From: Bacteroidales bacterium
Lineage (GTDB): Bacteria > Bacteroidota > Bacteroidia > Bacteroidales > F082
Assembly (NCBI GenBank): GCA_024709145.1
Contig: JANJXG010000113.1
Span: forward strand, 1 to 35,902
Reading direction: 5' to 3'
DNA length: 35,902 bases
Shown here: one piece after another, positions 1,566-35,548 of the stretch
Layout: the number at the start of each line of letters is the position of its first letter
How positions within the stretch are numbered: the stretch's first letter is position 1
The notes under the pieces: model-generated
What the model was told of the DNA's origin: nothing
Seen by the model: only the letters and a program-made list of their open reading frames with translations
Database searches by the model: none
Program-made: the position numbers and the translations under genes

Positions 1566-1639
1566 ATGAGTTTTTTTCGTTTTCAACATAAAACCAGCTT
1601 CATGAAACAACCATGAGCACCAATATGATTCTACCATGA
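1566..1639 (+). promoter_or_regulatory. Chain of two tiny upstream ORFs ending on the start codon
   Basis: In the leader, ATG at 1566 opens a 16-codon frame ([16 protein letters not shown]) whose TGA at 1614-1616 overlaps the ATG at 1613 as ATGA. That second frame (MSTNMILP) ends with TGA at 1637-1639, overlapping the gene's ATG at 1636, again as ATGA. CAGG lies directly before the first ATG. The arrangement is compatible with translational coupling, but very short ORFs can arise by chance and nothing shows that these are translated. Confidence 0.3.
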
Positions 1640-3006
1640 AAAAAATCTGTGTCATCGGCCTCGGTTATGTAGGCCTTCCCCTTGCCGTTGAATTTGCCAA
1701 AAAACGCCCTGTTGTTGGTTTCGATATCAAGCCCCAGCGCATCAAAGAATTGAACGAAGGCCACGATCCCACCCTCGAAGTCTCTGACGAAGACCTGAAG
1801 TCCGTCCTCGTCACCTCTTCTCCCTCAGTCACTCAGTCACCCAGTCACTCAGTCACCAACAAAGGCCTCTTTATAACTAACCAACTTGATAGCATCCACG
1901 ACTGCCAGATCTACATCGTTGCCGTACCCACCCCCACCGATAAAAACAACCGCCCCGACCTCACGCCGCTTGTAAAAGCCTCCGAAACGGTTGGTAAAGT
2001 ACTCAAAGACGGCGACATCGTCATCTACGAAAGCACCGTCTATCCGGGAGCTACCGAAGAAGACTGTGTACCTGTGCTGGAAAAGACCTCCGGCAAAAAG
2101 ATGAACGAACATTTCTTCGTGGGCTACAGCCCCGAGCGCATCAACCCCGGCGACAAACTTCACACGCTCACCACCATCAAGAAGGTGACAAGTGGCAGCA
2201 CACCGGAGATCGGCCTGGAGGTGGATGCCCTCTACCGCGAGATCATCGTGGCCGGAACACACCTGGCCCCCAGCATCAGGGTGGCCGAAGCCGCCAAGGT
2301 GATCGAAAACTCGCAGCGCGACATCAACATCGCCTTTGTAAATGAGCTCAGCAAGATTTTTCACAAGATGGGCATCGACACCTTAGAAGTGCTCGAAGCC
2401 GCCGGAACCAAATGGAACTTCCTGCCCTTCCGTCCGGGCCTGGTGGGTGGCCACTGCATCGGTGTTGACCCCTATTATCTTGCACAAAAAGCTCAGGAGG
2501 TGGGCTACCATCCCGAAATCATCCTGGCCGGACGCCGCCTCAACGACGGCATGGGCGCCTATGTGGCCGGCGAAGTGGTGAAGCTGTTGCTCAAAGCCGG
2601 CAAACCGGTGAAGGGTGCCAAAGCCCTCATGCTGGGCATCACCTTCAAGGAAAACTGCCCCGACATCCGCAACACCCGCGCCACCGACATCTATCATGAG
2701 CTGGTCTCCTTTGGCATGGAAGTAGATATCTACGACCCCTGGGCCGATGCCGAAGAGGTGAAACATGAATATGGACTCGATATCTTAACTGAATACCCAA
2801 GTCACTCAGTCACTCCATCCCTCCCTCACTCCATCACTAAGTCACCCGGTCACTCGTCATTAGTCACCTCTTACGCAGCAATAATTCTGGCAGTGGCGCA
2901 CAACGAGTTTAAAGAAATTGACATGGCTGCCCATAAAGCAGATGGCGCCATCATCTATGATGTGAAGGGGATCTTGCCGAAAGCAGTTGTGGACGCCAGA
3001 CTTTAG
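1636..3006 (+). CDS. UDP-glucose/GDP-mannose dehydrogenase family (TviB/WbpA type)
   Basis: Cytoplasmic NAD-dependent enzyme that oxidises a UDP-sugar (by similarity a UDP-N-acetyl-hexosamine) at C6 to the uronic acid, for capsule or O-antigen synthesis. Visible features are the N-terminal Rossmann motif GLGYVGLP (residues 8-15), [42 protein letters not shown], the central helix [18 protein letters not shown], the catalytic Cys274 in [12 protein letters not shown], and [14 protein letters not shown] in the C-terminal domain. Family members usually have about 425-435 residues; this one has 456. The excess lies in two Ser/Thr/Pro/His-rich inserts, roughly residues 60-74 and 388-412, both encoded by TCACTCAG-like tandem repeats. 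All key motifs are intact, so the enzyme is probably active. No polysaccharide cluster surrounds it. Exact substrate is not determined. Confidence 0.9.
1811..1857 (+). repeat. Octamer-like tandem repeat inside the coding region (insert 1)
   Basis: About four copies of an 8-base unit (CTCAGTCA with one CCCAGTCA), preceded by TCACCTCTT. It encodes the Ser/Pro/Val/Thr-rich stretch at residues about 60-74, in the loop before the strand that leads to [10 protein letters not shown]. As I recall the family, homologues have only a short turn here. Confidence 0.75.
2796..2871 (+). repeat. Related repeat inside the coding region (insert 2)
   Basis: A degenerate run of CACTCAGT, CCCTCACT and CATCACTAA words ending in GTCACCTCTT, the same terminal word as in insert 1 (TCACCTCTT). 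It encodes residues about 388-412 (rich in SHSVT / PHSIT), in the C-terminal domain just before [12 protein letters not shown]. The 11-mer GTCACTCGTCA at 2849-2859 recurs as its reverse complement TGACGAGTGAC at 35380-35390 and 35400-35410. Confidence 0.75.
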
Positions 3007-3126
3007 TCAGTAAAGGGTAATGGGTGACGGGTGATGCGTAATGGGCTGTGCTATTGGCTATTGGCTTTTAGCCGAATGACAGCCCATGACCCTGACTCCA
3101 AGACCCCCAGACTCCTAGACCAAAAT

Positions 3127-3165
3127 CCTACCGCCCGAAGCCCGATCAAGCCCAAGCGTGATGGG
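3127..3165 (+). repeat. Interspersed repeat, copy 1
   Basis: Contains CGCCCGAAGCCCGATCAAG followed by CCCAAGCGTGA and a seven-base repeat run. The same element recurs at 3224-3253 (copy 2, which diverges after ATCAAGCC) and at 6866-6903 (copy 3, with CATAATCAAG in place of CCCGATCAAG). Confidence 0.65.
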
Positions 3166-3223
3166 TGTTGGGTGTTGGGTGTGAAGAAAAAAAACTAACG
3201 CCTAACGCCTAACAACTTCAGCC

Positions 3224-3253
3224 GCCCTACCACCCGAAGCCCGATCAAGCCAA
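3224..3253 (+). repeat. Interspersed repeat, copy 2
   Basis: CCCTACCACCCGAAGC followed by CCGATCAAGCC, then directly a GACCAAA heptamer array. It shares its first part with the copies at 3127 and 6866 and lacks the CAAGCGTGA tail. Confidence 0.65.
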
Positions 3254-3294
3254 TGACCAAAGACCAAAGCCCAAAGCCCAAAGCCCGATTTCAA

Positions 3295-3316: not shown

Positions 3317-3703
3317 ATGAGTTACTACATCACCAAAACTGTTGATGGCGATTTCACTGCGGTGATCAGCCAGCTTACTGACGAACTGAAAAAGGTGGGT
3401 TTCGGCATCATTACTACCATCGATGTCAGTGCGACCCTCAAAGAAAAGATCGGAGCCGATTTCAAGCCATATACCATCCTGGGTGCCTGCAATCCGCATT
3501 TTGCCCATGAGGCCCTGAAGCTCGAAGAGATGCTGGGCGTGTTGCTTCCTTGCAATGTGGTGGTCATCGATCAGGGAAACGGGCGCATTCAGGTAGCAGC
3601 GATGGAGGCCATGTCGGCCATGTCGGCCATTGGTAATGAAGCGCTTACATCCCTGGCCGCCGGAGTGAGTGAACGCATCGAATCGGTTATCAAGGCCCTC
3701 TGA
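3317..3703 (+). CDS. DUF302 domain protein
   Basis: A 128-residue cytoplasmic protein covering essentially one DUF302 domain: SYYITKTVDGDFTAVISQL at the N-terminus, then the typical ILGACNPHFAHEAL segment and LLPCNVVV. The family is widespread and its biochemical role is not established; no signal peptide or membrane segment is present. Near the C-terminus a 9-base tandem repeat (ATGTCGGCC) encodes the AMEAMSAMSAIGNE stretch. It stands alone between the heptamer-rich gap and the convergent atoE gene. Confidence 0.85.
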   Translation: MSYYITKTVDGDFTAVISQLTDELKKVGFGIITTIDVSATLKEKIGADFKPYTILGACNPHFAHEALKLEEMLGVLLPCNVVVIDQGNGRIQVAAMEAMSAMSAIGNEALTSLAAGVSERIESVIKAL

Positions 3704-3823: not shown

Positions 3824-5131
3824 CTAGCTGTTGAGCAGCAGGACAAAGCTGAAGATCACAAAGCCTGCCAGCATAAATTTCAAGGCATAAGGAAGTATTT
3901 CTCCGGCTTTCAGCCCTGTGATTCCCAGCAGGGGTAATGCCCAGAAAGGTTGCATCATATTGGTAAGCTGATCGCCATAAGCCAGCGCCATCACGGTGAC
4001 ACTGTGCGACACACCGAGTGCTGTGGCGGCATCGGTCAGCAAAGGACCCTGCACCGCCCACTGACCTCCGCCGCTGGGCACAAAAAGGTTCACCACCGAG
4101 GCACTGACAAAAGCCAGCATCGGAAAGCTGCCTGCGTCAGCCAGATCGACAAACCAGCCTGTCATGACCGCCAGCAGCCCCGAATATTTCATCATGCCCA
4201 TGATCCCCGCATAGAGGGGAAACTGCAGGATGATACCCATCGTGCTTCCGGCTGCTGTTGAGGCTGCTTTGGAAAGCTTCCCGGGTTCCGGCAAAAAAAT
4301 CAACACCAGACCAAACAGCAACAGGTTGATCTCGTTGAGCCCGATACCGCCTCCCTTTTGCATGATTTGCTGCAGCAGCACTGTAACCACAAGTGCCAGC
4401 CCCGTGACACTCAACAGACTTATTTTGAAGACTTGTTCTTTTGTCGCACCTGCCTCCCTGTCGGGTACAACGATTTCCGGAATCCGCTTGGCTGTTTCGC
4501 GGGCCATCAGATAGGTAAGCCCCGGTATCACCAGAAAAAGCAACAGCCAGGCCAGCAGGTTCATACCCGAGAAAAGGGTATCTCCCAATCCGATCAGGCC
4601 GGTCTTGTCGAAAAGAAAATGACCCTGCCCGGCTACCGTCAGCGGTGCCGAGCCCGACAATCCGCCATGCCACACCATCATACACACATAGGCTGAGGCA
4701 CCCAAAAGGGGATAATTAATGGCACTTCCTTCCTTTTTGGCTTTCTCGGCCAGCTTTCGCACCAGCACCGAACCAAAAACAAGGGCCAGTCCCCAGTTCA
4801 AAAAACCGGCCAGCAAGGCTGTTAATACCACAGCCACGGCCTGCCTCCGGGGCTTCTGACCTGTCTTACTCAGGCCTGTCGAAAGGGCATCCAGGGCCGG
4901 CGACAATGCCAGCATATATCCCAGCAGCAAAATGAGTACCATCTGCATCGAAAAGGCGAGTAACTCCCAGAATCCCTTCCCCCACCAGCCAAGAAGCTGC
5001 ACAATTCCATGCAGGCCTTCACCGGCTTCGGTGCCGAAAAACCAGGCCAAAACAAGCGTGAGCCAGCTCAGCCACAAAGCCAGCACCATTGGGTCGGGCA
5101 CCTTTATCCGGATGTTGTTTCGCTGTTTCAT
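3824..5131 (-). CDS. atoE: Short-chain fatty acid transporter, AtoE family
   Basis: Inner-membrane carrier of the AtoE family, thought to move short-chain fatty acids such as acetoacetate or butyrate. The product is 435 residues with many hydrophobic helices. Family-type segments are GTEAGEGLHGIVQLLGWWGKGFWELL, given here only in outline (Gly-rich followed by Trp-rich), NWGLALVFGSVLVRKLA, MVWHGGLSGSAPLTVAG, the C-terminal VNLFVPSGGGQWAVQGP, and GDQLTNMMQPFWALPLLGI. The frame stays open to an ATG at 5170, but a TAnnTTTG element at 5159-5166 on this strand lies inside that extension. The start MKQRNN at 5131 is therefore preferred. It is transcribed divergently from the serine hydrolase gene. 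Together with ptb-buk at 26-28 kb it suggests butyrate or related acid metabolism; the direction of transport cannot be inferred. Confidence 0.88.
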   Translation of the reverse strand: MKQRNNIRIKVPDPMVLALWLSWLTLVLAWFFGTEAGEGLHGIVQLLGWWGKGFWELLAFSMQMVLILLLGYMLALSPALDALSTGLSKTGQKPRRQAVAVVLTALLAGFLNWGLALVFGSVLVRKLAEKAKKEGSAINYPLLGASAYVCMMVWHGGLSGSAPLTVAGQGHFLFDKTGLIGLGDTLFSGMNLLAWLLLFLVIPGLTYLMARETAKRIPEIVVPDREAGATKEQVFKISLLSVTGLALVVTVLLQQIMQKGGGIGLNEINLLLFGLVLIFLPEPGKLSKAASTAAGSTMGIILQFPLYAGIMGMMKYSGLLAVMTGWFVDLADAGSFPMLAFVSASVVNLFVPSGGGQWAVQGPLLTDAATALGVSHSVTVMALAYGDQLTNMMQPFWALPLLGITGLKAGEILPYALKFMLAGFVIFSFVLLLNS

Positions 5132-5158
5132 GTCTTCTGTTTTTCTGATTGTAAACAA

Positions 5159-5166
5159 CAAAAATA
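5159..5166 (-). promoter_or_regulatory. Candidate -7 element for atoE
   Basis: On the minus strand this reads TATTTTTG, matching TAnnTTTG, 27 bases upstream of the ATG at 5131. It decides the start choice against the more upstream ATG at 5170. No good -33 TTG was seen at normal spacing. Confidence 0.5.
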
Positions 5167-5170
5167 GCAA

Positions 5171-6905: not shown

Positions 6906-6930
6906 GTGATCCGTAATGCGTAATGGGTAT

Positions 6931-6979
6931 GAACTTTAAACTTTAAACTTTGAACTTTAAACTTTGAACTTTGAACTTG
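6931..6979 (+). repeat. Heptanucleotide tandem array, seven copies
   Basis: Seven uninterrupted 7-base units alternating between GAACTTT and AAACTTT. The reverse complement of the GAACTTT unit is a rotation of the GTTCAAA unit that makes up the array at 35271-35375. It sits 40 bases upstream of the TPR lipoprotein promoter element. Confidence 0.85.
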
Positions 6980-35256: not shown

Positions 35257-35270
35257 AAGCCTGAGGGTCA

Positions 35271-35375
35271 GTTCAAAGTTCAAGGTTCAAGGTTCAAGGT
35301 TCAAGGTTCAAAGTTCAAAGTTCAAGGTTCAAGGTTCAAGGTTCAAAGTTCAAGGTTCAAAGTTCAAAGTTCAAA
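35271..35375 (+). repeat. Heptanucleotide tandem array, 15 copies
   Basis: Fifteen uninterrupted 7-base units, a mixture of GTTCAAA and GTTCAAG, directly after the methyltransferase gene. Its GTTCAAA unit is the reverse complement (rotated) of the GAACTTT unit in the array at 6931-6979. Confidence 0.9.
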
Positions 35376-35412
35376 GGGGTGACGAGTGACTTATAGGGGT
35401 GACGAGTGACTT
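35376..35412 (+). repeat. Direct duplication of a 17-base word
   Basis: GGGGTGACGAGTGACTT occurs at 35376-35392 and 35396-35412. Its TGACGAGTGAC core is the reverse complement of a word inside insert 2 of the sugar dehydrogenase gene at 2849-2859. Confidence 0.75.
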
Positions 35413-35548
35413 TTTTTTACTTTTTACTTTTGCCTTTTTACTTTTGCCTTTTGCCTTCTTCCTTTTCCAGCGCCAGTGACAATCAACGAATCAACTCCTA
35501 AACCCTCTCAACTCCTAAACCATTCTAAACCAACAAATCAACTCCTCC
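35413..35548. repeat. Pyrimidine-rich heptamer run and simple-sequence tail
   Basis: From about 35418 to 35466 the sequence steps in sevens through ACTTTTT, ACTTTTG, CCTTTTT, ACTTTTG, CCTTTTG and CCTTCTT. After that come repeats of CAACTCCTAAACC. No gene is seen, and no hairpin terminator for the converging genes. Confidence 0.6.

What the first reader, a model, noticed from the sequence alone, without database searches (positions are those of the whole stretch)
1811..2871. Intergenic tandem-repeat words invaded a sugar dehydrogenase gene twice, in frame
The dehydrogenase is about 20-30 residues longer than I expect. The excess lies in two Ser/Thr/Pro/His-rich inserts (about residues 60-74 and 388-412), each encoded by TCACTCAG-type repeats. 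Both inserts share the word TCACCTCTT, and the 11-mer GTCACTCGTCA in insert 2 recurs reverse-complemented in the non-coding region at 35380-35390 and 35400-35410. Catalytic motifs are intact and both inserts fall between conserved strands. Either repeats spread into tolerant loops, or repeat slippage generated them. Copy-number change of an 8-base unit would shift the frame, so the gene could switch on and off.
Basis: partly seen in the sequence, partly recalled or inferred. Interest (0 to 1): 0.75.

Follow-up and report, generated by a model that had tools for sequence, protein, structure and literature searches.

The report
Repeat-filled loops in sugar dehydrogenase
Two loops of a bacterial sugar enzyme are filled, in frame, with short repeats of the kind usually found between genes, and some relatives carry different repeats in the same two loops, so these loops look like tolerant spots where repeat DNA can become protein.

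Summary
The gene (1636-3006, 456 aa, nucleotide-sugar dehydrogenase) is 19-29 residues longer than the orthologues in 7 of 8 other genomes of its genus. The excess lies in two loops encoded by imperfect 8-bp TCACYCAG arrays, out of codon phase and beyond synonymous expectation. TCACTCAGTCAC occurs three times in the 3.8-Mb genome, all in this gene, so no donor was found; its core TCACYC recurs in 7-bp arrays at 16 places. On/off switching has no support. Wider result: among 154 distinct homologues, strong 7/8/10/11-bp periodicity occurs in six, each time in these two loops, with different words. Some relatives carry palindrome-like inserts there; one palindrome has 41 copies in its host genome, several in frame inside other genes. 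Best reading: two insertion-tolerant loops where locally grown arrays or inserted repeats survive when in frame and stop-free. In effect this resembles Rickettsia palindromic elements; by element type it does not belong to them.

The parts
1636..3006 (+). nucleotide-sugar dehydrogenase gene, 456 aa (TIGR03026; NAD-binding, central and UDP-binding domains)
1810..1866 (+). insert 1 (residues 59-77): about six units of GTCACTCA-type 8-bp repeat (my parsing), between helix 51-57 and strand 77-81
2797..2874 (+). insert 2 (residues 388-413): about nine degenerate units, mostly 8 bp, some 7 bp (my parsing), between helix 372-379 and strand 415-418; model pLDDT below 50 at 392-407
2455..2457 (+). Cys274 codon in the motif GGHCIGVDP (catalytic role recalled, from no call), outside both inserts
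   Evidence: invariant column
3010..3045 (-). 7-bp array directly after the stop codon; on the minus strand it reads TCACCCGTCACCC at 3022-3034
3090..3286 (.). further 7- and 8-bp arrays with other words downstream of the gene
6930..6978 (.). 7-bp array AACTTTA between genes
35270..35466 (.). arrays between genes: GTTCAAR (7 bp), TGACGAGTGAC twice (reverse of GTCACTCGTCA), TTTTTAC/TTTTGCC

Best explanation
The enzyme has two loops whose length and sequence are hardly constrained. Genomes like this one generate imperfect 7-8-bp tandem arrays, nearly all of which, where read in G000, lie between genes or at gene edges; some relatives also carry dispersed short palindromes. In these two loops such DNA can survive if the net length is a multiple of three and its orientation gives no stop; it is then translated as a Ser/Thr/Pro/His-rich linker without a function of its own. 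In this lineage a TCACYCAG-type array was present in loop 1 first (shared with G466 and, shorter, G007). A second array with the same word appeared in loop 2 in the lineage of G000 and G008 and is about nine units long in G000 against about four in G008. Shown: the repeats, their positions, their absence or replacement in relatives, and the confinement of strong out-of-phase periodicity to the two loops. Inferred: growth by replication slippage, lack of function, flexibility of loop 1, and the order of events.
For: Loops 1 and 2 are the insertion hot spots of the alignment: 37 of 160 rows with 4 or more extra residues at query 62-72, 8 at 388 and 3 at 392-411, against 1 row each at 159 and 453. 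All 50 window-lag hits of at least 0.65, from 65,904 windows, lie in loop 1 (L007, L178, L023, L195) or loop 2 (L007, L040, L197): 6 of 154 distinct genes, against 6 of 800 codon-shuffled copies with such a window anywhere. Words differ by lineage. Near relatives show other states: G007 a short array in loop 1, G008 a short array in loop 2 and none in loop 1, G466 a collinear, diverged array in loop 1 only. The words are private to the gene in G000, G008 (13-mer) and G513, as local growth predicts. Residues 392-407 of loop 2 have pLDDT under 50, and the blocks holding loop 1 have 72 and 80. Loop 1 falls in a 15-residue gap of the alignment to 4r16 and a gap near it in Cap5O; those alignments end before loop 2.
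Against: Both loops of G000 use the same 14-base stretch although loop 2 of the other relatives printed holds no seed for it; purely local growth does not predict this, although TCACYC is a common core in this genome. Some relatives carry an inserted dispersed repeat, not a grown array (L102). Allele differences (21 nt in loop 1 of G000 against G007, 39 nt in loop 2 against G008) are not whole 8-bp steps. The gene trees are weakly supported, so the order of events is tentative. Lack of function is untested.
Confidence: 0.6

Rival explanations
1. Templated transfer: arrays are copied from site to site (intergenic to loop, or loop 1 to loop 2) by template switching or gene conversion rather than grown in place.
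For: AGTCACTCAGTCAC is shared by both loops and TCACTCAGTCAC is found nowhere else in the genome; the core TCACYC lies at 16 other places by my grouping of 50 matches, one directly 3' of the gene; the same 8-bp word forms arrays outside long frames in other genera, G027 and G101.
Against: No donor with the same 8-bp unit in this genome; G009 has different words in its two loops; in G513 the word is private to the gene.
Confidence: 0.25
2. Contingency locus: change in copy number shifts the frame and switches the gene, hence a surface sugar, on and off.
For: An 8-bp unit is not a multiple of three; a 16-bp unit is perfectly repeated twice in insert 1; sugar genes are often phase-variable in host-associated bacteria (recalled).
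Against: Most units are degenerate; 159 of 160 homologue rows hold both loops in one open frame and the other is cut off; differences among near relatives are in frame.
Confidence: 0.05
3. Adaptive linkers: the S/T/P/H-rich loops were selected for a function such as partner binding.
For: Both loops share composition in this species.
Against: Relatives have unrelated residues or no insert there; the DNA period is out of codon phase and beyond synonymous expectation, so the repeat is a DNA trait.
Confidence: 0.07
4. Assembly artefact of a draft genome.
For: Draft of 148 contigs.
Against: Other genomes, G008, G466 and G007, carry related repeats at the same places.
Confidence: 0.03

Closest known systems
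Rickettsia palindromic elements (RPEs) in frame in protein-coding genes (Ogata 2000, 2002; those papers not read, only as described in passages of PMC10969869 and PMC3733652)
   Same: Repeat DNA read through, in frame, as part of a protein that is probably functional.
   Different: RPEs are described as dispersed families of about 150 bp in unrelated genes. Here the elements are 7-8-bp tandem arrays, private to the gene in G000, G008 and G513, in the same two loops of one enzyme. The palindrome of L102 and its genome G562 is much closer to an RPE.
Intergenic heptameric simple sequence repeats (Xanthomonas, Nostoc: PMC4692102; TAACTGA in Beggiatoaceae, Cyanobacteria and Bacteroidetes: PMC4679880; abstract and passages read)
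   Same: Short tandem units of about 7 bp, abundant between genes; slippage proposed as source.
   Different: The passages read deal mainly with intergenic arrays and say that units in multiples of three are the likeliest in coding regions. Here an 8-bp unit lies inside an enzyme gene, twice.
Nucleotide-sugar dehydrogenases, TIGR03026 / TviB-like
   Same: Domains and invariant motifs intact.
   Different: Two repeat-encoded loops; score below the TviB equivalog cut-off.

Membership tests
TIGR03026 nucleotide sugar dehydrogenase | curated score cut-off 189.8 bits | tested here: met
   382.1 bits; Pfam PF03721, PF00984 and PF03720 above cut-off
NF011729 TviB equivalog | curated score cut-off 592 bits | tested here: not met
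   532 bits
Rickettsia-type coding palindromic element | in frame inside an ORF | tested here: met
   456-aa frame without a stop through both inserts
Rickettsia-type coding palindromic element | same element dispersed in the genome | tested here: not met
   TCACTCAGTCAC only in this gene; only the core TCACYC is dispersed, in 7-bp arrays
Rickettsia-type coding palindromic element | palindromic sequence | tested here: not met
   no perfect 8-bp stem with a loop of up to 12 listed for L007 in the two loops
Phase-variable contingency locus | long, near-perfect repeat tract | tested here: not met
   longest perfect tract is a 16-bp unit twice over; the rest is degenerate
Phase-variable contingency locus | length variants within a population | not testable with these tools
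   no reads
Intergenic heptameric SSR | 7-bp unit | tested here: not met
   8-bp period in both inserts; lag 7 not above shuffles

The most novel reading that the evidence does not exclude
Short word arrays in Bacteroidota are mobile: a copying process spreads 7-8-bp arrays between intergenic sites and into permissive loops, and in this gene it copied one word from loop 1 to loop 2. The two loops of this dehydrogenase act as a widespread landing site that records the process.
Probability: 0.25. Interest if true: 0.75.

Novelty: new variant of a known kind. Interest (0 to 1): 0.5.

Why it matters
Repeat DNA of an intergenic kind has become protein several times, at the same two positions of one conserved enzyme, with different repeats in different lineages. 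That is a natural experiment on where proteins accept new sequence, and a way to test whether short arrays grow in place or travel. It also points to an RPE-like coding palindrome in a Bacteroidota genome (G562).

Tried and rejected
TCACCTCTT as a link between the inserts: rejected, 5 copies in the window, three elsewhere. CCCCCTTTGGAGGGGG as a dispersed family: not found in G009 (1 exact copy, in the gene, and 2 with two mismatches); in G274 and G373 one match each with two mismatches, where the control pattern gave 2 and 3. So the hairpin look of the loop-2 inserts of G009, G274 and G373 is not backed by copies in their own genomes. GCGGGCTTGACCCGC: none in G000 and G248, and L110's genome is not held and was not searched. 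The insert of G248 (L196) was not counted in its own genome, as no search was left. GCAACCCGCAACCC: none in G000, G288 and G561 (L040's genome); 4 one-mismatch matches in G009 and 1 in G466. Perfect 8-bp stems are not concentrated in the loops: 55 stems over the alignment, 7 of them at query 55-80 or 380-415.

Alignment errors on the way: I forgot strands; still took a wrong open frame for a few distant loci (such as L027, L033, L035); chose the frame by BLAST. One search stopped on a script error and was replaced. Six of 160 rows were duplicates of one gene from two collections.

At a lower threshold (0.60) six further genes appear, L046, L050, L068, L113, L200 and L214, with windows near residues 60 or 350-400 of their own numbering; I did not map these to the loops.

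Gene trees of the genus are poorly resolved, so the history of the loops rests on shared sequence. The identity of G008 to G000 falls to 65-72% around loop 1, where G466 keeps 81-88%; replacement by recombination in G008 is possible and was not tested further.

Papers: nine searches listed no paper that I recognised as describing repeats in these dehydrogenase loops; that is a statement on those listings, in an open-access library.

Full report
The thing itself. The gene at 1636-3006 encodes a 456-aa nucleotide-sugar dehydrogenase. It passes the TIGR03026 cut-off and scores best with, but below the cut-off of, the TviB equivalog. Neighbours are queG (234-1184), a small protein at 3317-3703 with no NCBIfam match, and a TIGR00366-like protein on the minus strand at 3824-5170, below that model's cut-off. 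The window is contig C70 of a 3.8-Mb genome in 148 contigs, 99.35% complete. The best named match to the gene is in the bin Bacteroidetes bacterium GWF2_41_31.

The inserts. Insert 1 is GTCACCTC-TTCTCCCTCA-GTCACTCA-GTCACCCA-GTCACTCA-GTCACCAA; insert 2 has about nine degenerate units, mostly of 8 bp, some of 7 (my parsing). The period is 8 bp, so neighbouring units are read in different frames; the repeat belongs to the DNA, not to the peptide. Synonymous recoding of the same peptides reached the observed lag-8 identity in 0 and 2 of 5000 trials. On the opposite strand the TCAC word contains TGA, which with an 8-bp period would fall in every frame, so only the orientation present could stay open (seen from the sequence).

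Relatives. Seven of the eight other genus members have the orthologue, 427-437 aa. By my reading of the printed codons, G007 has three units in loop 1 and the other six genus members none; in loop 2 G008 has about four units and the other six none. G466, of another family, has a gene 91% identical over residues 1-391. Its loop 1 region has 45 residues, as in G000, with units that match those of G000 position by position apart from substitutions, and it has no insert in loop 2. Around loop 1 G466 is closer to G000 (81-88%) than G008 is (65-72%); elsewhere, above all in the C-terminal part, G008 is closer. The simplest history is an old array in loop 1, lost or replaced in G008, and a younger one in loop 2; the trees are too weak to prove it.

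The wider pattern. I aligned 160 homologue rows: 30, 80, 10, and 40 chosen for identity or for long span; 154 are distinct. A scan of 65,904 windows of 40 nt for identity at lags 7, 8, 10 and 11 gave 50 window-lag hits at 0.65 or more, all in loop 1 or loop 2: L007 and L178 (TCAC words), L023 (CAACTTCY) and L195 (GCAACCC) in loop 1; L007, L040 (CTTCGTC) and L197 (CATCACT) in loop 2. Three of these six genes (L007, L023, L040) are among the 115 distinct genes of the first 120 rows, three (L178, L195, L197) among the chosen 40, so the frequency is not unbiased. Codon-shuffled rows had such a window in 6 of 800 cases. Taking L007 and L178 loop 1 as one event leaves six events, all within some 40 of 456 residues. 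At 0.60, six more genes have a window, not mapped to the loops.

Other inserts at the same places look, by eye, like palindromic repeats: L102 and L110 (TGTCATTGCGGGCTTGACCC..., loop 1), L196 (loop 1), L023, L188 and L191 (C-run/G-run hairpins, loop 2); perfect 8-bp stems were found there only in L110 and L188. Only one was shown to be a dispersed family: in G562, the genome behind L102, the 15-base core occurs 41 times with up to one mismatch, 25 of them exact, control 0; the copy in the L102 loop itself carries one mismatch. Of 24 exact copies read in 20 stretches, 17 lie 90 nt or more inside an open frame of at least 80 aa. Of 10 such frames given to Pfam, 8 matched a family; in the ketoacyl synthase, amidohydrolase, DALR and ABC-transporter frames the repeat lies inside the matched domain. 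Open frames are a crude gene call and coding density is high, so this shows that in-frame copies exist, not that genes are preferred.

Where the words come from. TCACTCAGTCAC is found only in this gene in G000, 3 of 3; with up to three mismatches a 19-mer again only here, 4 of 4. GTCACTCAGTCAC is found in 14 of 173 family genomes. Eight of those 14 carry it inside what looks like one conserved coding sequence (frames of 519-522 aa, L143-L150), G027 and G101 carry it in arrays of the same 8-bp unit outside long frames, G179 and G180 as single words outside long frames, and G000 and G008 in this gene. In G000 a 7-bp relative, TCACYCDTCACYC, has 50 matches against 1 control at 16 places by my grouping (pattern chosen after seeing the C81 array). 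Of 12 such arrays read, none lies deep in a long frame: four are covered by no frame of 60 aa, six by frames of 60-92 aa only, which cannot be ruled out as genes, and two stand 12 and 59 nt from the start of frames of 225 and 224 aa. In the 328-kb sample (5,427 masked bases, window included) TRF gave 31 merged arrays, of which 8 are 7- or 14-bp arrays outside the called frames. Among 222 frames of 150 aa or more, windows with lag-7 or lag-8 identity of at least 0.6 were the two inserts, one at the very start of a frame in L177, and one in a frame antisense to the gene at 3317-3703.

Structure. In the AlphaFold model (mean pLDDT 84.3) loop 1 joins helix 51-57 to strand 77-81, with block means of 72 and 80, and loop 2 joins helix 372-379 to strand 415-418, with residues 392-407 under 50. 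The invariant columns, Cys274 among them, lie outside the inserts.

Judgement. The finding is real and part of a recurrent pattern. Invasion from intergenic repeats is proven for no tandem array here; it is likely for the L102/L110 palindrome. Growth in place, filtered by reading frame, explains most, but not the shared word of the two loops. Phase switching has no support. In effect this works like the coding palindromes of Rickettsia (passages of PMC10969869 and PMC3733652), but it is not a member of that class.

Noticed in passing
G562 (genome of L102), loci L224-L243: A palindromic repeat (peptides CHCGLDPQS, GIAGQARND, VIAGLTRHP) lies in frame inside several housekeeping-type genes, an RPE-like situation in Bacteroidota.
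   Followed up: partly
window 3010-3290 and 35270-35466: Dense 7-8-bp arrays with many different words side by side outside the genes.
   Followed up: partly
L177:18583-19578: An open frame whose first codons are an AAAGACC-type 7-bp array; the start may be misplaced or the array may encode the N-terminus.
   Followed up: no
G022:C10:32746-33222: A partial second copy of the dehydrogenase (78% identity, one internal TAA) near the copy at 34989-36266.
   Followed up: no
L178 (G466:C65): A gene 91% identical over residues 1-391 in a genome of another family, which also holds a 63%-identical copy (C23); possible horizontal transfer or binning error.
   Followed up: no
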